64,000 bases of DNA, taken from contig NZ_QOVM01000003.1 of NCBI RefSeq assembly GCF_004104375.1, forward strand, positions 124,001 through 188,000, read 5' to 3'. Below the pieces are notes generated by a model that had not been told where the DNA came from, made no database searches, and saw only the letters and a list, made by a program, of their open reading frames with translations. The position numbers and the translations under genes were made by a program. How positions within the stretch are numbered: the stretch's first letter is position 1; every line of letters starts with the position of its first letter. Source of the DNA: Leeuwenhoekiella aequorea. Its GTDB lineage: Bacteria; Bacteroidota; Bacteroidia; Flavobacteriales; Flavobacteriaceae. Shown piece by piece: positions 5,166 through 25,024 of this stretch.

Positions 5166-5512
5166 ACGTTAATTAATGGATTTTTAAGCACTTATTTTCA
5201 ATTATAATCCGGGCGACTTGCTGCTGATCAAAATTCTTCTAAGAAATTGAAAATCAGTCATAAGCAGCAACCGGGCTATTCGCTATATCTTTTTGGGTAT
5301 CAGTGGCACATTATACGCAAAAGGCGTAAAATGTTCTGAGTAACAAAAAAGGATGTCGCTGCTATCCCTGCCGCAAGGCTTCTATTTGTTATTAATACAT
5401 ATACTAATTGCTAATCACTCTCTTCATTAATGAATACTGTACGAACTTTGTAATTTGTATGTTTCATTTCAAATTTTCAAAGCTTTATCTTTACCTCTTT
5501 AAAACCCAAGCG
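5166..5512. other. Intergenic region typA/kdsA without recognised gene
   Basis: About 350 bases between divergent genes. A reading frame runs upstream of the kdsA start but has no family match and is better treated as leader. No RNA gene or repeat was recognised; the kdsA promoter should lie in its right part. Confidence 0.5.
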
Positions 5513-13364: not shown

Positions 13365-13762
13365 GGGGTCGATTTGGTTTTGACATCGGGTCTAATTGAG
13401 TAGTAAGCACGCCGAGCGCTGGGACAAAAGCTCGTAAATCTCATGTTTCACACTTTTTAAACGGCGAGAATAACTACGCCATGGCTGCATAATCCGAATT
13501 ACAGTAGGATTACTTAATCTCATACAAGGTATGAGACCATGATACCTCTGAAAAGCCTTGGTTTACGGCGTTTCGTTTAGAGGTACCGAAAAAGTAAACA
13601 TAGCTATCGCAGGGTCTTGATGTGGTAGTGAAACTTAATCGAGAATAAGGTATTGCTTGGTAGTTGCCGACCGGGTACTATTCGAAAACTAATTGGCAAA
13701 TAAGCGTGTAGAAAGCTATTGAGTTGCCTGTTTGCACGGCGGTTCGAACCCGCCCGACTCCA
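13365..13762 (+). ncRNA. ssrA: Transfer-messenger RNA (tmRNA)
   Basis: Rescues stalled ribosomes and tags the unfinished peptide for degradation. The 5' end GGGGTCG (13365-13371) pairs with CGACTCC (13755-13761) to form the acceptor stem, with A13762 as discriminator. The T arm GGCGG-TTCGAAC-CCGCC is clear near the 3' end. The CCA is not encoded. About 398 bases, normal for the phylum. The tag frame lies at 13463-13492. Confidence 0.97.
13463..13492 (+). other. tmRNA tag reading frame (GENNYAMAA)
   Basis: Reading from the resume codon GGC at 13463 gives Gly-Glu-Asn-Asn-Tyr-Ala-Met-Ala-Ala then TAA at 13490-13492. The ending in Ala-Ala is the usual ClpXP degron. The exact resume codon is inferred by similarity to other tmRNA tags. 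Confidence 0.85.
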
Positions 13763-13766
13763 CAAT
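13749..13766 (+). repeat. 18-bp direct repeat at ssrA 3' end (att-like copy 1)
   Basis: The last part of ssrA, starting in the T loop/T stem and running four bases past the discriminator (CCCGCCCGACTCCACAAT). An identical 18-base copy lies at 13917-13934. The position at the T-loop/3' end of tmRNA is a classic attachment core for tyrosine integrases. Confidence 0.8.
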
Positions 13767-18109: not shown

Positions 18110-18487
18110 TTAAGAGTCCAAACAATCTGGACAAACTCCTGAAACCATAAAGTTCAACTGATTAATTTGGTAATTTGAAGGAAGCTTAAATGTGGGTTCC
18201 ACATCTTCAACACACGTTACAACATTACATTTTTCACAATTAAAATGTATATGATCGTGTTTATGCTCGGTAGAGCAACTATGGCAATTTGCATATTTTA
18301 CAACGCCGTCGATATTTGTGATTTGATGCACCGATTTTTCTTCGACCAGCCGGTCCAATACGCGATAAATTGTTACTCGATTGCATAAACCATCTGGTAA
18401 AATAGCCTGAATTTCAGCTTGTGATAATGCTGTATCTGACTCATTTATAGTTTTTAAAATAGCTTCCTTAGCAATTGTTTTTCTCAT
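18110..18487 (-). CDS. Fur family metal-responsive repressor (Zur-like)
   Basis: A 125-residue DNA-binding repressor. Residues 1-65 form the winged helix (NRVTIYRVLDRLVEEKSVHQI). The dimerisation part has C68/C71, the histidine cluster H75-H81, and two CxxC pairs (C84/C87 and C119/C122) that hold structural zinc. Its gene is divergent from a MerC/TonB cluster, and two palindromes sit between them, one inside its own promoter, which suggests autoregulation. I favour a zinc sensor from the neighbours, but iron or another metal is not excluded. A 3' fragment of a sister copy lies at 14154-14314. Confidence 0.9.
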   Translation of the reverse strand: MRKTIAKEAILKTINESDTALSQAEIQAILPDGLCNRVTIYRVLDRLVEEKSVHQITNIDGVVKYANCHSCSTEHKHDHIHFNCEKCNVVTCVEDVEPTFKLPSNYQINQLNFMVSGVCPDCLDS

Positions 18488-18491
18488 AATA

Positions 18492-18523
18492 CAAATTTAA
18501 TGCAACAAAGTTGCTTTAACAAA
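18492..18523 (-). promoter_or_regulatory. fur promoter
   Basis: On the minus strand TTTG (18520-18523) and TAAATTTG (18492-18499) are separated by 20 bases. A GCAAC-N3-GTTGC palindrome fills most of the spacer. The -7 box is only five bases upstream of the start codon, so the message would have almost no leader. Confidence 0.5.
18502..18514. promoter_or_regulatory. Putative Fur/Zur operator 1
   Basis: Perfect palindrome GCAAC-AAA-GTTGC. It lies within the spacer of the fur promoter, and its right edge overlaps the TTG that could be the -33 box of the merC promoter. Confidence 0.65.
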
Positions 18524-18534
18524 GAAATTATATT

Positions 18535-18542
18535 TACTTTCG
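18535..18542 (+). promoter_or_regulatory. merC-cluster promoter -7 element
   Basis: TACTTTCG, one change from TAnnTTTG, 21 bases after a TTG at 18511-18513 and 24 bases before the merC-like start codon. Operator 2 begins on its last base. Confidence 0.5.
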
Positions 18543-18554
18543 CAACTGTGTTGC
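18542..18554. promoter_or_regulatory. Putative Fur/Zur operator 2
   Basis: Perfect palindrome GCAAC-TGT-GTTGC, same arms as operator 1. Centres are 40 bases apart, near four helical turns. It covers the expected transcription start of the merC cluster. Confidence 0.65.
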
Positions 18555-18566
18555 AATAATGAAATT

Positions 18567-18911
18567 ATGCGAGAGAAATATTACGATTTGATTGGTGTTT
18601 ATTCTGCCTTTTTGTGTTTAGCACACTGTATATTAGGTCCTATTCTTTTTATAGTTCCATTAGGTATAAGTCATAGTCCATTACTTGATAGTTTTTTTCT
18701 CATAGTTGGGTTATTTCCTGTTTATAAAGTAGTGCGTAGTAAATCTCCGGTATTTTTAAAGATACTACTAGTATTTTCATTTGCGCTTATCGCACTTTCT
18801 ATAACCTTAGAAGCACTTTATCATCAAGAATCATTTTTAATATTTATAGGGGCTATGGGAGTCATCTCATCGCATCTTATGAATTATAATTATAAAAAGC
18901 ACATATTATGA
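18567..18911 (+). CDS. MerC-domain inner-membrane protein
   Basis: A 114-residue protein with about four membrane helices. The first helix carries the MerC signature FLCLAHCILGP with Cys17 and Cys21, the pair that binds Hg(II) in true MerC. In Bacteroidota such short MerC-like proteins often lie next to Fur/Zur genes rather than mercury reductase. No merA or merR is here, so a role in zinc or another soft metal is more likely; that is inference. It is the first gene of the cluster controlled by the two palindromes and overlaps the next gene by four bases. Confidence 0.85.
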   Translation: MREKYYDLIGVYSAFLCLAHCILGPILFIVPLGISHSPLLDSFFLIVGLFPVYKVVRSKSPVFLKILLVFSFALIALSITLEALYHQESFLIFIGAMGVISSHLMNYNYKKHIL

Positions 18912-19816
18912 ATCTGTCAAATTCTTATGATGTAATTATTGTTGGTGGAAGTTATGCCGGTTTATCAGCCGCGATGGCTTTGGGTCGTTCATTGCGTTCG
19001 GTGCTTATTATAGATGCTAATAAACCCTGCAATAAGCAAACACCGCATTCTCATAATTTTATTACTCAAGATGGTGAAGCGCCTCATAAAATTGCCCAAA
19101 AAGCAAAAGAGCAAGTACTCAAATACGACACCGTAGAATTTTTAGACGATACGGTTATAGGTGGAAATAATAACGGAACTAGTTTTACAATTCTTACGAA
19201 CTCCGGAAAAACCGTTGAAGCGAGAAAACTCATACTTGCAACCGGTATAAAAGATATAATGCCCGATATTGAGGGGTTTTCTGAATGCTGGGGAATTTCT
19301 GCTATTCATTGTCCTTATTGCCATGGCTACGAATTTAGAAATGAAAAAACGGCAATTATGGCAAATGGTGATCACGCCTTTCATGTCGCCAGTCTTGTAA
19401 ATAATCTTACTAACGAACTTTCTATTTATACACAAGGAGAGCCTGATTTTACTGATGACCAACTTAAAAAGTTGAGCAACAATAATATTGCTATTGTTAC
19501 AGATACGATTAAGAAATTGGAACACACAAATGGCAGTATAGAAAAAGTTCTTTTTGAAAATGGAAGCTCCCAAATGGTTAAGGCTATATATGCTGCTTTA
19601 CCTTTTGAGCATCACACACAACTCCCTGAAATGTTAGGTTGCACATTTGATGAAGGAGGATTTATCAAGATAGATCTATTTCAGAAAACTGAAATACCCG
19701 GGATTTATGCCTGCGGAGATAACGCTCAAAAAATGCGGTCTATATCTAGTGCTGTTGCTTCAGGGACTGTTGCCGGGGCAATGGTAAACCACGAACTCAC
19801 TCAGGAAGACTTTTAA
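18908..19816 (+). CDS. Thioredoxin-reductase-like FAD/NAD(P) oxidoreductase
   Basis: A 302-residue cytoplasmic flavoprotein. The FAD-binding GGSYAG is at residues 13-18, the redox pair is C135-P-Y-C138 followed by HGYE, and the C-terminal FAD motif is IYACGDNAQKM. Length and layout match the bacterial thioredoxin-reductase-like family whose CPYC-containing members often act on metal or thiol substrates other than thioredoxin. The second Rossmann part has ANGDHAF in place of the usual GxGxxA, so NADPH binding may be weak or altered. The start overlaps the merC-like gene (ATGA). Confidence 0.85.
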   Translation: MNLSNSYDVIIVGGSYAGLSAAMALGRSLRSVLIIDANKPCNKQTPHSHNFITQDGEAPHKIAQKAKEQVLKYDTVEFLDDTVIGGNNNGTSFTILTNSGKTVEARKLILATGIKDIMPDIEGFSECWGISAIHCPYCHGYEFRNEKTAIMANGDHAFHVASLVNNLTNELSIYTQGEPDFTDDQLKKLSNNNIAIVTDTIKKLEHTNGSIEKVLFENGSSQMVKAIYAALPFEHHTQLPEMLGCTFDEGGFIKIDLFQKTEIPGIYACGDNAQKMRSISSAVASGTVAGAMVNHELTQEDF

Positions 19817-19854
19817 AACAATCGATAATAAGAAAAAGTTACTTCTAAGAAAAT

Positions 19855-20154
19855 ATGTCTTTACAAATTAAACAATCTCTAGCACTGCTATTCTTGGCTT
19901 CCTTCCTTATGACGAAGATGGCAGGATTTCATGTGCTAACTCACGATGATTCAAATCTAAGTGAGGATTGTGCTATTTGTCAGGTTTTTATTTCAGACAG
20001 TCAAACTTTAATAGTTCTTGATAAAGCTCAAGAATTTTCACCTACACCTGAATTTACAATTCACCAAAAGACAGATTTAGTAATTACTACAGCAATTCTA
20101 AAATCTAATTACTACTCCTATCACCTATTCTCCCGGCCTCCGCCATCTATCTAA
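19855..20154 (+). CDS. Small exported Cys/His protein
   Basis: A 99-residue protein with an N-terminal hydrophobic stretch (residues 8-20) followed by H26, H30 and the close pair C39/C42 in EDCAICQVF, and a C-terminal FSRPPPS. This layout recalls short periplasmic metal-binding proteins of the DUF2946-like type often found before TonB receptors, but I cannot place it in a family with certainty. Located between the flavoprotein and the TonB receptor, it could bind a metal ion in the periplasm. Confidence 0.6.
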   Translation: MSLQIKQSLALLFLASFLMTKMAGFHVLTHDDSNLSEDCAICQVFISDSQTLIVLDKAQEFSPTPEFTIHQKTDLVITTAILKSNYYSYHLFSRPPPSI

Positions 20155-20309
20155 ATCTCATTTCTATTCTTGCAAAGGTTTACTAGTCAGCTATTGAGTT
20201 GCCTTATTCAAAAGGTTATTACACCTAATTACTAGTAATACCAAAAAACTATCAAGTATTCACCAGCTCCCGCAAAACCGGGAGTAACTACTAATTTTAT
20301 TATTTAATC

Positions 20310-22673
20310 ATGATTATCAGATTACTGATAATGGGACTATTCTTGCTGTTTAGTTCCTATTCCTACACGCAGCAGAGCTCCTATTTTGAAGGTTTTGTTA
20401 TAGACTCCATAACCTTAAAACCTATTTCTGGTGTTACCATTTTAGGTGAAAATGTGTATGCAGTGACTAACGATTCAGGATATTTTAAAATAAAAAAAAC
20501 AAAACTAGCTTCAGAAGTTGAGGTTTCCCATCTGGGTTATTTACCTGTAAAATTTACAATTGATAAAAATCAAAACAGCCCTTTAAAAATCAAATTAAAA
20601 ACTATTAGCACGTCACTAGATGAAGTCTCTGTACATAGCAAAAGTGCCAATAGGTTAGCTAAAGAAACATCGACAATTGAAGTAGCTGTAGATGAAGAAT
20701 ACCTGCACGCCAATCGCGAGAACAGCTTAATGCAAACATTAAGAAAGATTCCCGGTGTTAGCACAATGACAATTGGATCTGGTCAATCAAAACCTACCAT
20801 ACGAGGACTCGGTTTTAACCGAGTAAGTGTCATTCAAAATGGAATCAAGCACGAAGCGCAACAATGGGGAAGTGATCACGGTCTTGAGATTGATCAATAC
20901 GGAATTGAAGAAATACGCATCATTAAAGGACCGGCTTCCTTAATGCATGGCTCTGATGCTATCGCTGGTGTAGTTGATATACAACCTGCCAAAACACCTG
21001 CCATAAATAGTTTTGAGGGTGAAGTTAATATTCTGGGTGAGACCAATAATGAGCTACTGGCAATTTCTACAGGGGTACAAGGAAGAAAGCAAAAGTGGTA
21101 CTATAGAGCTCGCTTAACCTATAGAGATTATGCAGACTTTAAAGTTCCTACAGAACGAATTAGCTACGAGAACTACATTTTTGAACTGGATAATAACAAT
21201 TTACGCAATACCGCAGGTCAGGAAGCAAACGGTAGTGTTAGCATCGGCTATGTGGATGATTCTTTTAAATCAGAAACTTATATAAGCAATGTAAATGCTA
21301 AGAATGGTTTTTTCGCGAATGCTCATGGTTTAGAAGTACGCACTTCAAGTATAGACTACGACACGTCTAATCGGGATATTGATTTACCCTTTCATAAAGT
21401 AAATCATATTAAAATCGTGAACAATAGTTGGTTAGATCTTGATTCACACAAGCTCTTTTTTGATATAGGTTACCAAAATAATCAACGGGAAGAACATTCA
21501 GAACCCGTGCCTCACGGTTATATGCCTAAGCCACCTAATAGCCGAGAACGTGTTTTTACCAAAAACACCTATTCCCTTAATGCAAAAGACATTTTTAAGC
21601 TGAATGACGCCCACACTTTATCGGCAGGTTTAAATACCGAATATCAAAATAACAACATTGGAGGATGGGGATTTTTAATTCCTGCTTACAATAGGTTTAC
21701 AGCAGGTATTTTCTTGTTTGATCACTACGAAGCAAATGATAATTTGCATTTACAAGGCGGCGTTCGCTATGACGCAGGTAGTTTAAAAACCAATTCGTAT
21801 TATGACTGGTATAGGTCTCCACGAGATAATAATGATGGAACCACTTCTACCCTATTTCTTCAACGTGCAGAAAACAGAAATTTAAATTTTAATAGCTTCA
21901 GTGGTTCTCTAGGTATTAGTTATATACATAAGAATACCACCTACAAGCTAAATATAGGCAAGAGCTTTAGAATGCCTCTAGCTCACGAATTAGCTTCAGA
22001 CGGTGTAAACTATCATATGTACCGTTATGAACGCGGAAATCTGGATCTAGATCCTGAGTCCTCCTATCAATTGGATGCTGAGGTACTCTTTGAAAGTGGG
22101 TTTCTCAGTTTGAGCGTAAGTCCATTTGTGAATTTCTTCGACAACTATATTTATCTCAATCCAACCTCAGATTATGTAGAAACGCTGCAAGTCTATGAAT
22201 ACACACAATCAAAGGTATTTAGAACGGGTGGTGAATTGAGTTTAGGATATAACTTTACAAAGTCTTTTAATGTAAATGCATCTGCAGAGTACGTTTACTC
22301 AAGACAAACTAGCGGACCTAAGGAAGGATTTACAATTCCCTTTTCACCGCCATTAACCGGTACACTGACCACAAATTATCAATTTGGAAATTTTGGATTT
22401 CTCAATGACCTCAACTTGACCGTTGATATGCGTATTGCTGCAGCCCAAAACGAAATTGTTCCTCCAGAAGAAATCACAGCGGGATACCGTGTTTTTAATC
22501 TTTCTATGCGAAGTAAACTCGATTTATTTAACAAGGATAAAGCAGCCCTATTACGGATCAAACTCAATAATATTTTCAACTCAGAATATTACGATCACAC
22601 CAGTTTTTACAGGCTTATAGACGTGCCCGAAGCAGGTCGTAATCTATCTGTCTCCTTAACAGTTCCTTTTTAA
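20310..22673 (+). CDS. TonB-dependent receptor (probable metal/metallophore)
   Basis: A 787-residue outer-membrane receptor: signal peptide, carboxypeptidase-D-like domain (FEGFVIDSITLKPISGVTIL, about 22-105), plug with LMQTLRKIPGVSTMTIGSG and GPASLMHGSDAIAGVVDI, then a barrel ending in LSVSLTVPF. The extracellular-loop candidates contain His-rich pieces such as EEHSEPVPHGY. The gene order (Fur-type regulator, MerC-like, Cys/His protein, receptor, His-rich lipoproteins) points to a zinc or similar divalent metal system akin in concept to ZnuD, but the ligand is inferred. Confidence 0.9.
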   Translation: MIIRLLIMGLFLLFSSYSYTQQSSYFEGFVIDSITLKPISGVTILGENVYAVTNDSGYFKIKKTKLASEVEVSHLGYLPVKFTIDKNQNSPLKIKLKTISTSLDEVSVHSKSANRLAKETSTIEVAVDEEYLHANRENSLMQTLRKIPGVSTMTIGSGQSKPTIRGLGFNRVSVIQNGIKHEAQQWGSDHGLEIDQYGIEEIRIIKGPASLMHGSDAIAGVVDIQPAKTPAINSFEGEVNILGETNNELLAISTGVQGRKQKWYYRARLTYRDYADFKVPTERISYENYIFELDNNNLRNTAGQEANGSVSIGYVDDSFKSETYISNVNAKNGFFANAHGLEVRTSSIDYDTSNRDIDLPFHKVNHIKIVNNSWLDLDSHKLFFDIGYQNNQREEHSEPVPHGYMPKPPNSRERVFTKNTYSLNAKDIFKLNDAHTLSAGLNTEYQNNNIGGWGFLIPAYNRFTAGIFLFDHYEANDNLHLQGGVRYDAGSLKTNSYYDWYRSPRDNNDGTTSTLFLQRAENRNLNFNSFSGSLGISYIHKNTTYKLNIGKSFRMPLAHELASDGVNYHMYRYERGNLDLDPESSYQLDAEVLFESGFLSLSVSPFVNFFDNYIYLNPTSDYVETLQVYEYTQSKVFRTGGELSLGYNFTKSFNVNASAEYVYSRQTSGPKEGFTIPFSPPLTGTLTTNYQFGNFGFLNDLNLTVDMRIAAAQNEIVPPEEITAGYRVFNLSMRSKLDLFNKDKAALLRIKLNNIFNSEYYDHTSFYRLIDVPEAGRNLSVSLTVPF

Positions 22674-22711
22674 ACTATTCAATTAATCTATTAATATTTA
22701 AACTAAACTTT

Positions 22712-23488
22712 ATGAAATCAAATTTTAAACTTTTAAGCTTTTTTGTACTTGCAGCAGTTACGCTTAGTTCGTGCAGTAGTGATGACGACAGTCCGCTTAT
22801 TGAAGAAGCTCCGATAATAACTAATTTTGAATATGGCGAAGGCAGTAGTCATGGCGATGAACAAGTAGGTTATAAAGGATCAGACATTCATCTTGAAGCA
22901 GAAATAGTTGCAGAAGCTACCGTAAGTAGTATTGCACTTGATATACACGCGCACGACCTGGAACCAGGCGAAGATGAAGTAGCATGGGATTTTAAGCAGA
23001 TCTATACAGATGCAGATTATCTGGTAAAAAATCCGGTCTTTCATGAACATGTTGATGTTCCTGCAAATATTCCATCAGGTGAATATCACATTACGCTTAC
23101 GGTGACCGATTCTAATGGAAACAGTACCGAGATTGAAGGCCATATTCATATTATGGATGCTGTGACTACCAGTGCATTATCTATCGATGAAAGCGTTGTA
23201 CGCGGAACTGACCTGCATACAGAGTTGTTTATTGAAGCGGTACACGGAGTTCACAATGTAACTGTAGATATCCACGCACATGGTCTAACTGTGGGTGAAG
23301 GAGAGCAAGAATGGCACTTTGAGCAAGTTTATGAAGAGGGATATCACGGTGAAACAAGTGTAGAATTCCACGAGCATATTGATGTGCCGGTTACCGCTCC
23401 AGTAGGTGAATATCATATGGTTATTACGATTGAAGATGAAGAAGGAAATACCAGCAAGATAGATACACACTTTAATGTAACGTTATAA
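22712..23488 (+). CDS. Histidine-rich DUF4625-type lipoprotein, two tandem domains
   Basis: A 258-residue lipoprotein with lipobox LSSC followed by SSDDDS, which resembles the surface-export signal of flavobacterial lipoproteins. Two similar domains follow (about 35-145 and 155-258). Each carries DIHAH(D/G)L, an FHEH(V/I)DVP piece and GEYH(I/M), so conserved histidines recur at matching places. These match DUF4625. I infer a surface metal-binding role together with the TonB receptor 38 bases upstream. Confidence 0.8.
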   Translation: MKSNFKLLSFFVLAAVTLSSCSSDDDSPLIEEAPIITNFEYGEGSSHGDEQVGYKGSDIHLEAEIVAEATVSSIALDIHAHDLEPGEDEVAWDFKQIYTDADYLVKNPVFHEHVDVPANIPSGEYHITLTVTDSNGNSTEIEGHIHIMDAVTTSALSIDESVVRGTDLHTELFIEAVHGVHNVTVDIHAHGLTVGEGEQEWHFEQVYEEGYHGETSVEFHEHIDVPVTAPVGEYHMVITIEDEEGNTSKIDTHFNVTL

Positions 23489-23495
23489 AAACTCA

Positions 23496-23533
23496 TATAG
23501 CCAAATGCCTACTTATTTAGGCATTTGGCTATA
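23496..23533 (+). other. Strong intercistronic hairpin
   Basis: Perfect 15-base arms 23496-23510 and 23519-23533 around an 8-base loop. No T run follows on the plus strand, so it is a weak candidate for a terminator; a processing or RNA-stabilising role between two lipoprotein genes is possible. Confidence 0.6.
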
Positions 23534-23547
23534 CTTATATTCGACAA

Positions 23548-24024
23548 ATGAAAAAAATAAATTTTATCCTTTTTACGGCTAGCTTGTTTGTACTTAGCGC
23601 CTGCTCCTCAGATAATGATACAATTAAAGACGAAGAGAAACCTACAATTACAATTAACTACGATGGTGGTTTTCCTCAGGTTTGTGAAAGCTTACAACGC
23701 GGAGAAACATATACATTTAGAGCAAGACTAGCAGATAATGAAGCACTCGCATCATACAGTCTGGATTTACATCACAATTTTGACCATCATACACATGATG
23801 ATCAAGGAGCAACCTGTAGCTTAGATGCTAAAAAAGAGTCGGTAAAACCGTTTATTTATATGGAAAACTTTAGCCTAGATGGAGCCCGAAAAGAATTTGA
23901 AATTGAAATAAAAATTCTAATCCCTACAGATATCGATACAGGTGATTACCACTGTTCTTTCTCAGTGACTGATGAGGTAGGCTGGCAAAGTAGAACTTCC
24001 GTAGACATTAAAATTGTGAATTGA
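23548..24024 (+). CDS. Histidine-rich DUF4625-type lipoprotein, single domain
   Basis: A 158-residue lipoprotein with lipobox LSAC followed by SSDNDT. One DUF4625-like domain follows. The equivalent of the DIHAH segment is expanded to LDLHHNFDHHTHDDQGATC, a dense His/Asp/Cys cluster that could bind metal. Two further cysteines are present (VCESL and YHCSF). It lies behind the strong hairpin at 23496-23533 and so may be expressed at a different level from its neighbour. Confidence 0.75.
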   Translation: MKKINFILFTASLFVLSACSSDNDTIKDEEKPTITINYDGGFPQVCESLQRGETYTFRARLADNEALASYSLDLHHNFDHHTHDDQGATCSLDAKKESVKPFIYMENFSLDGARKEFEIEIKILIPTDIDTGDYHCSFSVTDEVGWQSRTSVDIKIVN

Positions 24025-24055
24025 TTAAACTTCTCAATAACGACAACACTTATAA

Positions 24056-25024
24056 ATGAAAACAAAACTATTAAACTTTATCGGCATTATATTTCTATGT
24101 ATTACTTCTATCTCTTGCTCTAATGACGACGATGAAGTTATTGTTCTTGAAGAACCCACAATAGCTAATATTGAAGTTGGGTTAAATAATAACGAAATTG
24201 GAGTTATTGGCAGGGACTTTCATTTCAATGCCGAAATCCTGGCAGGTGATAAGATTGACGCTATTAGTTTGAAAATACAACCAAAAGTTAGTGAAACTTA
24301 TGCGTTTGATTGGTCTTTAGAGGCTGTTTGGGAGGAATATAAAGGTGTCAAAAATGCAACGGTACACAAACACTTTGACATTCCTGAAAGTGCAGCAGAA
24401 GGAATTTATGATCTTATCATCACCGTAGAAGATGAAAATGGTACAAAACTGGAAGAAGTAAAAACTATAACGATCTTTCTGCCAGAAAGTCTTCCGGTTG
24501 ATCCCAAACTTGAAGAATTTTCAGTTTCAGCAAGGGGTGATAGCGGCTTTAGAATTTTATACATCCTTTCAAGAGGAGGTTATCGTGATTCTGAGACTTT
24601 AGAATATGGTGATTACAATGTTTTTATAAACGAAAACGAAACTCTAAATCCTGCTGCAACAATTAGTGGAATAAAAGACGATGGAAAATTGTACATATTA
24701 CTAATAAACAAAAAACATAATCATAGACCCGAATCTATCAACAGTATCGATTTTACCAAAGCAATCGTAGTGGATGTTTTTGAACATAACGATTTGGAGC
24801 AAACTGACAGATGGACTCACGTTAATTATCTACGTCCTGAATTTCCTGATATTTCTAAACTTCTTATTGGTGCATCAGTAGATAACAATTACCCAAATCC
24901 AATTGAAATTAACAGCCTTAAAGTCTGGGAATCTGGTGATTATTACGTAGGGGTAATTTATAAAAATACAACATACCGTATGAGTTTATTTCATTATTTG
25001 GAAGTTTCAATAAATATGGATTAA
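24056..25024 (+). CDS. DUF4625-type lipoprotein with extra C-terminal domain
   Basis: A 322-residue lipoprotein with lipobox ISSC(S)NDDDE. Residues 30-145 align with the DUF4625 domains of the two preceding genes, but the histidine positions are mostly replaced (LKIQPKVSE instead of DIHAH); HKHFDIP is kept. The remaining 170 or so residues (from ARGDSGFRILYILSRGG) form a beta-rich domain I do not recognise. It is the last gene before a terminator. Confidence 0.7.
   Translation: MKTKLLNFIGIIFLCITSISCSNDDDEVIVLEEPTIANIEVGLNNNEIGVIGRDFHFNAEILAGDKIDAISLKIQPKVSETYAFDWSLEAVWEEYKGVKNATVHKHFDIPESAAEGIYDLIITVEDENGTKLEEVKTITIFLPESLPVDPKLEEFSVSARGDSGFRILYILSRGGYRDSETLEYGDYNVFINENETLNPAATISGIKDDGKLYILLINKKHNHRPESINSIDFTKAIVVDVFEHNDLEQTDRWTHVNYLRPEFPDISKLLIGASVDNNYPNPIEINSLKVWESGDYYVGVIYKNTTYRMSLFHYLEVSINMD

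What the first reader, a model, noticed from the sequence alone, without database searches (positions are those of the whole stretch)
18110..25024. Candidate new metal-acquisition system: Fur-type regulator, MerC-like, flavoprotein, TonB receptor, DUF4625 lipoproteins
A single divergent unit joins a Fur/Zur-type repressor to a MerC-like membrane protein, a CPYC flavoprotein, a small exported Cys/His protein, a TonB receptor and three DUF4625-type surface lipoproteins, two of them rich in histidine. Together these give surface capture, outer-membrane import, periplasmic handling and inner-membrane transfer for a soft divalent metal, most likely zinc. A MerC-family protein without mercury genes and a redox enzyme in such a pathway are unusual.
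Basis: inference. Interest (0 to 1): 0.72.

Follow-up and report, generated by a model that had tools for sequence, protein, structure and literature searches.

The report
Zinc-starvation receptor operon of Flavobacteria
A conserved gene cluster of Flavobacteria looks like a zinc-scavenging kit with two surprises: an enzyme resembling those that disarm zinc-stealing toxins, and a small peptide whose end looks like a ribosome-stalling signal in front of the receptor gene.

Summary
At 18110-25024 a Fur-family gene diverges from seven genes: MerC, flavoprotein, small Cys/His protein, TonB receptor and three DUF4625 lipoproteins. Two TGCAAC-N3-GTTGCA-type palindromes lie between fur and merC. In 80 receptor-anchored relatives the small gene (75 loci), receptor (80) and DUF4625 genes (79) are conserved; Fur is nearby in 40, MerC in 26, the flavoprotein in 13. 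Boxes precede cluster genes in 45 of 80 loci. CobW-type GTPases nearby and a receptor nearest to ZnuD point to zinc; the host has no ZnuA match.

Best reading: a Zur-type zinc-starvation operon. DUF4625 lipoproteins and a ZnuD-like receptor import zinc. The flavoprotein groups with dithiol oxidases (DepH, GliT), not thioredoxin reductase, and probably re-oxidises zinc-chelating dithiols, as zinc-starvation-induced DnoP does in Pseudomonas. Across Bacteroidota a box lies upstream of it at 15 of 23 places.

The small protein is the surprise. All 76 relatives carry RPPP near the end, 68 of them 2-3 residues before the stop, with every Arg and Pro codon used. No ORF of another kind among 563 small ORFs has this ending. 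It resembles arrest peptides and may gate receptor translation. That is untested, and some copies have no receptor next.

The parts
18110..18487 (-). Zur-like Fur-family repressor, 125 aa
   Evidence: Pfam FUR over cut-off; closest solved chain E. coli Zur 4mtd, E 3.2e-05; residues aligned with H77, C88, H96 and four structural Cys of E. coli Zur (residue roles recalled)
18501..18515 (.). palindromic box 1, TGCAACAAAGTTGCT
   Evidence: conserved upstream of fur in 34 of 40 loci with at most 2 mismatches
18541..18555 (.). palindromic box 2, CGCAACTGTGTTGCA
18567..18911 (+). MerC-family membrane protein, 114 aa
   Evidence: Pfam MerC 41.8 bits, cut-off 27.6
18908..19816 (+). flavoprotein of the DepH/GliT dithiol-oxidase group, motif HCPYCHGYE
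19855..20154 (+). small membrane/exported peptide, 99 aa, Hx3H and CxxC, C-terminal RPPP
20134..20145 (+). RPPP codons, two codons plus stop after them
   Evidence: invariant in 76 of 76 relatives
20267..20284 (+). GC-rich hairpin CTCCCG-CAAAAC-CGGGAG between peptide and receptor
   Evidence: 20085-20340 folds better than all 200 shuffles, z -3.5; conservation of structure across loci not established
20310..22673 (+). TonB-dependent receptor, closest solved relative ZnuD
22712..23488 (+). DUF4625 lipoprotein 1, two DUF4625 domains, 20 His
23548..24024 (+). DUF4625 lipoprotein 2, HHNFDHHTHDD
24056..25024 (+). DUF4625 lipoprotein 3, variable member (matched in 10 of 80 loci)

Best explanation
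A zinc-starvation operon. A Zur-like repressor with zinc bound sits on the two palindromes and silences its own gene and the seven-gene arm. When zinc falls the arm is expressed. DUF4625 lipoproteins at the cell surface hold zinc in their histidines and pass it to the ZnuD-like TonB receptor, which moves it into the periplasm; MerC or the host's ZIP proteins carry it inward. The cytosolic flavoprotein re-oxidises small dithiols that chelate zinc (holomycin or gliotoxin type), so that they release it. The small HxxxH/CxxC peptide acts just upstream of the receptor, as a membrane-bound zinc handler or, through its RPPP end, as a translational gate. Shown: gene set, order, box conservation, protein kinships, motif conservation. 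Inferred: the metal, repression, transport steps and the flavoprotein's substrate. Guess: the inner-membrane step and translational gating.
For: Boxes with at most 2 mismatches upstream of fur in 34 of 40 loci (shuffles about 0.1%) and upstream of some cluster gene in 45 of 80 loci against 10 of 445 other ORFs. Split pieces keep the box in L147, L148, L229, L230, L233, L234. CobW in 9 of 80 loci and in the boxed operon of L148; GTP cyclohydrolase I in 6 of 80. Nearest solved receptor ZnuD, E 3e-18, profile E 5.6e-26, with the receptor's invariant Asp189-His190 on the ZnuD Asp-His. No ZnuA match, two ZIP genes. Flavoprotein nearest to 3fbs, DepH, 4fk1, 4ntd, GliT, NADPH-site HRR lost, box upstream at 15 of 23 places in the phylum against 3.9% in resampled controls, CobW directly upstream at 2 more. 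All four DUF4625 matches of the host lie here.
Against: NCBIfam cut-offs for Zur, ZnuD and thioredoxin reductase are not met; the receptor scores slightly higher with TonB-hemin (154.9 bits) than with ZnuD (145.7), and the regulator slightly higher with a Fur model (34.5) than with Zur (30.8). Copper receptor OprC is the second solved relative. 35 of 80 loci show no box within 250 bp of a cluster gene. The window's regulator groups with only two of the 40 locus regulators and is sister to efflux-linked Fur paralogues. The same box precedes efflux operons (L092, L149). An Nramp gene follows fur in L233-L236 (family tested for L233). Six of 23 flavoprotein places show neither box nor CobW, one of them a broken copy.
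Confidence: 0.6

Rival explanations
1. The metal is not zinc but manganese, nickel, copper or iron/haem; the regulator is another Fur type and the receptor imports that metal or a complex of it.
For: TonB-hemin model scores above ZnuD and a Fur model above Zur, all under their cut-offs; OprC (copper) is the second solved relative; Nramp follows fur in L233-L236 and a DtxR-type repressor stands beyond it in L233 and L234; the box resembles the nickel Nur box (recalled).
Against: CobW and GTP cyclohydrolase I in the neighbourhoods, ZnuD nearest by sequence, the Cys88 equivalent in the repressor.
Confidence: 0.2
2. The small protein is simply a membrane-anchored zinc-binding chaperone; its RPPP end is a protein-protein contact, not an arrest signal.
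For: Invariant Hx3H and CxxC suggest metal binding. In L147 and L148 no receptor follows the peptide, and in L242 and L245 the next gene is an ABC ATPase.
Against: RPPP lies 2-3 residues before the stop in 68 of 76. Peptides without a BLAST match to this family, heading related operons in L229, L230 and L200, end in RAPP plus 2-3 residues.
Confidence: 0.55
3. The cluster answers metal excess or thiol stress: MerC, the flavoprotein and the repressor form a detoxification module and the receptor is incidental.
For: The same box precedes an RND and P-type ATPase operon that carries Fur-like genes (L092) and a similar one in L149.
Against: Receptor, small gene and DUF4625 genes are the most constant part, though the loci were chosen by the receptor. 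L229 and L230 show receptor and DUF4625 genes with boxes and no flavoprotein or MerC. No mercury genes were noted beside the cluster.
Confidence: 0.1

Closest known systems
Zur regulons with TonB-dependent zinc receptors (ZnuD of Neisseria; others in Caulobacter, Pseudomonas)
   Same: Fur-type repressor with a palindromic operator, TonB receptor nearest to ZnuD, COG0523/CobW proteins in the regulon of relatives
   Different: Other operator sequence, DUF4625 lipoproteins, no ZnuA match in the host, flavoprotein and RPPP peptide in the operon
DnoP of Pseudomonas aeruginosa (PMC11317636) and the dithiol oxidases DepH, HlmI, GliT
   Same: CxxC flavoprotein of the same sequence group; DnoP is also induced by zinc starvation and the authors place it in the DepH group
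   Different: Here the gene sits directly behind a zinc-type operator, next to zinc-uptake genes; activity and substrate untested; DnoP's own sequence was not compared here
Gliotoxin self-protection pair GliT plus GtmA of Aspergillus (PMC8743625)
   Same: A dithiol-oxidase relative with a methyltransferase gene beside it in four loci (L037, L048, L051, L053)
   Different: The methyltransferase only equals the TPMT cut-off; no such gene in the window
Arrest peptides (SecM, ApdP; recalled)
   Same: Small membrane/exported protein with an R-x-P-P end just before the stop codon, in most cases upstream of a gene for an exported protein
   Different: Carries a Hx3H/CxxC site; no stalling shown; some copies lack a receptor next to them
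Zrg zinc ABC system of Vibrio (listing and abstract starts only)
   Same: In 9 of 80 loci an ABC ATPase, FtsX-like permease and small exported protein lie near the cluster
   Different: Not seen among the window's cluster genes; likeness is by gene content only, not tested by sequence

Membership tests
Fur superfamily | Pfam FUR above its cut-off | tested here: met
   32.1 bits against 23.1
Zur | NCBIfam Zur equivalog score | tested here: not met
   30.8 bits against cut-off 167; a Fur model scores 34.5 against 220
Zur | Regulatory-site His, Cys, His, Glu (E. coli 77, 88, 96, 111; recalled) | tested here: inconclusive
   His, Cys and His aligned, Glu falls in a gap
Zur | Zinc-dependent DNA binding | not testable with these tools
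   needs gel shift with purified protein
ZnuD | NCBIfam ZnuD model score | tested here: not met
   145.7 bits against 950
ZnuD | Zinc ligands Asp99, His100, Glu340, His499 (PMC4557270) | tested here: inconclusive
   Asp189-His190 align with the first pair by an inferred numbering offset; His569 is two columns from His499; Glu340 lies outside the alignment
MerC | Pfam MerC above its cut-off | tested here: met
   41.8 bits against 27.6
DepH/HlmI/GliT dithiol oxidases | CxxC active site in the HCPYCHGYE context | tested here: met
   identical in DepH and in 4ntd alignments; 34 of 36 relatives, the other two HCPYCHGWE
DepH/HlmI/GliT dithiol oxidases | Loss of the NADPH-binding HRR of TrxB (that these enzymes do without NADPH is recalled) | tested here: met
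   HRR present in E. coli TrxB, absent at that place in the 36 aligned relatives
DepH/HlmI/GliT dithiol oxidases | Oxygen-dependent dithiol oxidation | not testable with these tools
   needs enzyme assay
Thioredoxin reductase | TIGR01292 score | tested here: not met
   109.8 bits against 343.45
DUF4625 | Pfam DUF4625 above its cut-off | tested here: met
   185.3, 141.2 and 84.8 bits against 27
Arrest peptide | Conserved arrest-type motif close to the C terminus | tested here: met
   RPPP in 76 of 76, stop 2-3 residues later in 68 of 76; likeness to known arrest motifs is recalled
Arrest peptide | Ribosome stalling that changes downstream translation | not testable with these tools
   needs toeprint or reporter

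The most novel reading that the evidence does not exclude
The operon carries a two-layer zinc circuit. A Zur-type repressor controls transcription, and a membrane-inserted HxxxH/CxxC leader peptide with an R[P/A]PP arrest end senses zinc, or export, co-translationally and gates the zinc receptor downstream, as SecM gates SecA. The same operon expresses a dithiol oxidase (in four relatives with a methyltransferase gene beside it) as built-in defence against the zinc-chelating antibiotics of competitors.
Probability: 0.28. Interest if true: 0.82.

Novelty: new variant of a known kind. Interest (0 to 1): 0.6.

Why it matters
It gives DUF4625, a domain of unknown function with no paper in the library searched, a testable role as zinc-binding partner of a receptor. 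It places a dithiol-oxidase-type enzyme directly behind a zinc-type operator; [quoted passage not shown] It would make defence against zinc-chelating dithiols a standing part of zinc starvation in many Bacteroidota. The RPPP/RAPP peptides would be a class of candidate arrest peptide that carries a metal site, which would make co-translational metal sensing directly testable.

Tried and rejected
Chance palindromes: rejected. A wide regulon in the host: not found. Of five exact core places two are here, one precedes an efflux operon, one lies inside a gene and one in a T-flanked hairpin. The looser search (167 forward, reversed control 102) was uninformative; of the 13 sites with at most 2 mismatches, one is this promoter, one the efflux operon, ten lie inside ORFs and one (L102) outside any with no metal gene seen beside it.

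A strict 17-base palindrome hit 6 of 31 family genomes, 7 sites; one stands before a lone flavoprotein gene, others at a Fur/P-type-ATPase pair and near an RND-type gene. Of 17 stretches fetched around boxes in relatives, 5 have the box only inside unrelated ORFs (L152, L153, L156, L159, L163), that is, chance.

A general MerC-zinc rule: only partly true. Of 30 MerC loci viewed (38 places in 118 genomes), 8 have a box within 600 bp upstream of the MerC match and 6 a Fur gene near; the other 22 have no such box.

DUF4625 fold: Ig-like sandwich, no solved relative by sequence, only low-TM structural matches. DUF4625 is rare in the phylum: 8 of 158 genomes; 2 plasmid records. RNA: no Rfam family at the leader; RNAalifold found no consensus. 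A motif at the receptor start occurs in 31 of 81 leaders (shuffles 2.5%), with an inner stem of 4 or more pairs in 24 of 31 (shuffles 41%), but the window lacks it. Leaders are more stable than those of other genes (p 0.003) but not than DUF4625 leaders, so this is not used as evidence for a gate.

Papers: the search MerC, Flavobacteri, Zur by word start gave 185 papers; the 15 listed looked like noise. The second structure job was not used.
Full report
WHAT IS THERE. The host genome has 3.46 Mb in 18 contigs; its closest receptor relatives are Leeuwenhoekiella (74-75% identity). Families: FUR, MerC, Pyr_redox_2, none for the small protein, plug plus TonB barrel, DUF4625 in three genes. All four DUF4625 domain matches of the host lie in this cluster. 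The left neighbours, a GLPGLI protein and an 881-aa ORF, are probably unrelated: by BLAST the 881-aa ORF has relatives in 4 of 80 loci and the GLPGLI protein in none.

OPERATOR. Two palindromes, TGCAACAAAGTTGCT (18501-18515) and CGCAACTGTGTTGCA (18541-18555), lie in the fur/merC gap, 40 bp apart. The core GCAAC-N3-GTTGC occurs at five places in the genome and its reversed control at none. Of the other three places, one precedes an efflux operon, one is inside an ORF and one is in a T-flanked hairpin.

CONSERVATION. A scan with the receptor found 210 relatives and kept the best 80 loci, so every count below is conditional on the receptor, and some loci are short contigs. By clustering, DUF4625 genes occur in 79 loci, the small gene in 75, Fur in 40, MerC in 26, an ABC ATPase in 14, the flavoprotein in 13, CobW in 9, an FtsX-like permease in 9, GTP cyclohydrolase I in 6 and a methyltransferase in 5 (families of single representatives). 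By BLAST to the window proteins the counts are 40 fur, 14 flavoprotein, 13 merC and 10 third lipoprotein. The small gene lies directly upstream of the receptor in 75 of 80 and a DUF4625 gene directly downstream in 79 of 80. Boxes with at most 2 mismatches lie upstream of fur in 34 of 40 loci, against about 0.1% of shuffles. They lie upstream of some cluster gene in 45 of 80 loci, against 10 of 445 other ORFs of the same neighbourhoods; the other 35 loci show none within 250 bp. On a tree the window's regulator groups with those of L015 and L072 and next to efflux-linked paralogues of the host, apart from most regulators of the other loci, so the regulator may have been exchanged.

ONE REGULON, SEVERAL ARRANGEMENTS. 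In the genome of Leeuwenhoekiella aestuarii the receptor cluster has two boxes (L011), fur and a peptide diverge over two boxes (L147), and a third box heads merC-CobW-flavoprotein-peptide (L148). In two genomes of the host's family one locus is fur / two boxes / merC-flavoprotein-receptor, and another holds two boxes before a small peptide, DUF4625 genes, a receptor 46-47% identical to ours and a His-rich lipoprotein (L233 with L230, L234 with L229). Separated pieces keeping the same box is the best evidence that all belong to one regulon.

WHICH METAL. The case for zinc is comparative. CobW proteins (PF02492 plus PF07683) and GTP cyclohydrolase I sit in these neighbourhoods. The review PMC6103462 (passages) lists COG0523/CobW proteins and folE2 as recurring Zur targets; folE2 is a different GTP cyclohydrolase type (recalled), so that part is an analogy. 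The nearest solved receptor is ZnuD, E 3e-18, with copper receptor OprC next, E 4.6e-09 (profile search). ZnuD binds zinc with Asp99, His100, Glu340 and His499 (PMC4557270, passages). The window receptor has an invariant Asp189-His190 (27 of 27) at what I take to be the first pair, from an inferred numbering offset of 14; His569 is two columns from His499 and Glu340 is not covered. The repressor keeps the equivalents of His77, Cys88, His96 and four structural Cys of E. coli Zur, while Glu111 falls in a gap (the roles are recalled). The host has no ZnuA match and two ZIP genes; a ZIP protein takes up zinc in Riemerella, another of the Flavobacteriales (PMC11960050, passages). Against zinc: NCBIfam's Zur and ZnuD cut-offs are not met, and Fur and haem models score slightly higher; an Nramp gene follows fur in L233-L236 and a DtxR-type repressor stands beyond it in L233 and L234 (family tests for L233 only); the same box precedes RND operons in the host and in L149.

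THE FLAVOPROTEIN. The best solved relatives are 3fbs, DepH, a putative reductase 4fk1, 4ntd (deposited as thioredoxin reductase; that it is HlmI is recalled) and GliT, with E. coli-type reductases far below. HCPYCHGYE is present in 34 of 36 relatives and HCPYCHGWE in the other two; the HRR of the TrxB NADPH site is absent in the 36 aligned. In 198 genomes of the phylum 21 have a close relative, at 23 places including our own. At 15 of 23 a box with at most 2 mismatches lies within 750 bp upstream (resampled control 3.9%; 0 of 23 in a 500-nt stretch inside the gene); at two more CobW is directly upstream; six show neither, one of them a broken copy. Dolan et al. (PMC11317636; abstract, outline and passages) show that DnoP of P. 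aeruginosa is induced by zinc starvation, oxidises reduced gliotoxin and holomycin, and falls in the DepH group; they say the signalling cascade is unresolved. In Aspergillus, GliT and the methyltransferase GtmA both convert the zinc-chelating dithiol (PMC8743625, passages). Five of 80 loci hold a methyltransferase gene; it stands just behind the flavoprotein gene in four (L037, L048, L051, L053) and 4 kb away in L069. Its Pfam TPMT score only equals the cut-off. A caution: in Bacillus, FAD-dependent TrxB and AhpF activate thiolutin by reducing it (PMC12288471, passages), so the direction of the reaction must be tested. I read the flavoprotein as a dithiol oxidase that frees zinc from chelating dithiols; its substrate is unknown.

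DUF4625 AND MERC. Lipoprotein 1 has 17 histidines kept in at least 80% of 70 sequences, and lipoprotein 2 keeps the string HHNFDHHTHDD. The model of lipoprotein 1 is a pair of beta sandwiches (mean pLDDT 87.7); Foldseek gives Ig-like matches at low TM-score only. MerC is found in 35 of 118 genomes of the phylum; of 30 loci viewed 8 have a box within 600 bp upstream and 6 a Fur neighbour. So MerC belongs to the regulon in some lineages and not visibly in others.

THE SMALL PEPTIDE. This is the unexpected part. The family is about 40% identical on average (600 sampled pairs), yet 76 of 76 members keep Hx3H...CxxC and 76 of 76 keep RPPP; in 68 of 76 the stop follows after 2 or 3 residues. All six Arg and all four Pro codons are used, so the protein and not the DNA is selected. 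Among 563 ORFs of 70-160 aa in 111 held stretches of at least 7 kb, C-terminal R[AP]PP occurs 83 times: 75 in the 80 loci and 8 in peptides of the same class elsewhere (window included), none in any other ORF. Controls at the same place: PP[AP]R 1, R[GS]PP 1, K[AP]PP 0; interior R[AP]PP 0. Some stretches repeat genomes (L154 and L155 those of L072 and L055; L228 appears to be that of L040), so the 8 are not all independent. Peptides without a BLAST match to this family end RAPPFTL and RAPPLTL ahead of DUF4625-receptor genes (L229, L230) and RAPPCA ahead of a receptor (L200). A more distant relative in the host (matched over profile positions 5-72 only) ends KAPPIV, 189 bp ahead of a receptor-like ORF (L244). 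A profile search of 296 genomes of the phylum found the family in 5. R-x-P-P ends just before a stop recall arrest peptides such as SecM and ApdP (recalled, not read here). Against a receptor gate: in L147 and L148 no receptor follows the peptide, in L242 and L245 the next gene is an ABC ATPase, and a conserved leader structure was not established. No stalling has been shown.

MECHANISM, IN STEPS. Shown: gene set, order, box conservation, protein kinships, motif conservation. Inferred from families: repression by zinc-loaded regulator, zinc capture by DUF4625 histidines, import by the receptor, dithiol oxidation. Guess: inner-membrane step by MerC; translational gating by RPPP.

NOVELTY. Zur-controlled zinc receptors are known. 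This is a Bacteroidota variant with an unassigned lipoprotein family, a built-in dithiol-oxidase relative and a possible arrest peptide. Library searches: DUF4625, no paper; MerC with Zur, zinc and regulon, one general review (listing only); dithiol oxidase with Zur, Flavobacteria, zinc starvation and DnoP, the DnoP paper and one on ribosomes; Zur regulon with Bacteroidetes, TonB-dependent and zinc, two papers, one of them on ZntR. For the peptide no paper search was made.

Noticed in passing
L092:5448-17713 (host contig C3, about 371.4-383.7 kb): A perfect box TGCAACACAGTTGCA at L092:6667 stands before small Cys/His genes (DUF6660), an RND pump fused to an outer-membrane efflux domain, a P-II-like gene, two Fur-like genes and a P-type ATPase, next to a phage-type integrase: an efflux operon, probably mobile, with the same operator type as the uptake operon.
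   Followed up: partly
L037:7916-8000 and 30 other leaders of the 80 related loci: Conserved leader motif TATAGGTTTTG ... CAAATCTTATAGTA, mostly 7-8 nt before the receptor start, with a variable inner stem, in 31 of 81 leaders (shuffles 2.5%); not in the window. Unexplained.
   Followed up: partly
L092:7123-7518 and L149:5624-5932: Small Cys/His proteins ahead of RND pumps end SLFQPPKV and SLFQPPRV, another proline-rich end two residues before the stop.
   Followed up: no
L244 (host contig C2, about 449.7 kb): A distant relative of the small peptide, ending KAPPIV, ahead of a receptor-like ORF in the host, without a box.
   Followed up: partly
L095:5373-7900 (host contig C6): A further Fur-like gene directly ahead of a P-type-ATPase-like gene, with a two-mismatch palindrome TGCACTTCTGTTGCA between them.
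   Followed up: no
L186: A relative of the flavoprotein gene carrying five stops, in a genome that also holds an intact relative.
   Followed up: no
window 13365-13765 (+) and 5265-5376 (-): tmRNA gene and a Flavo-1 RNA at its gathering score.
   Followed up: no
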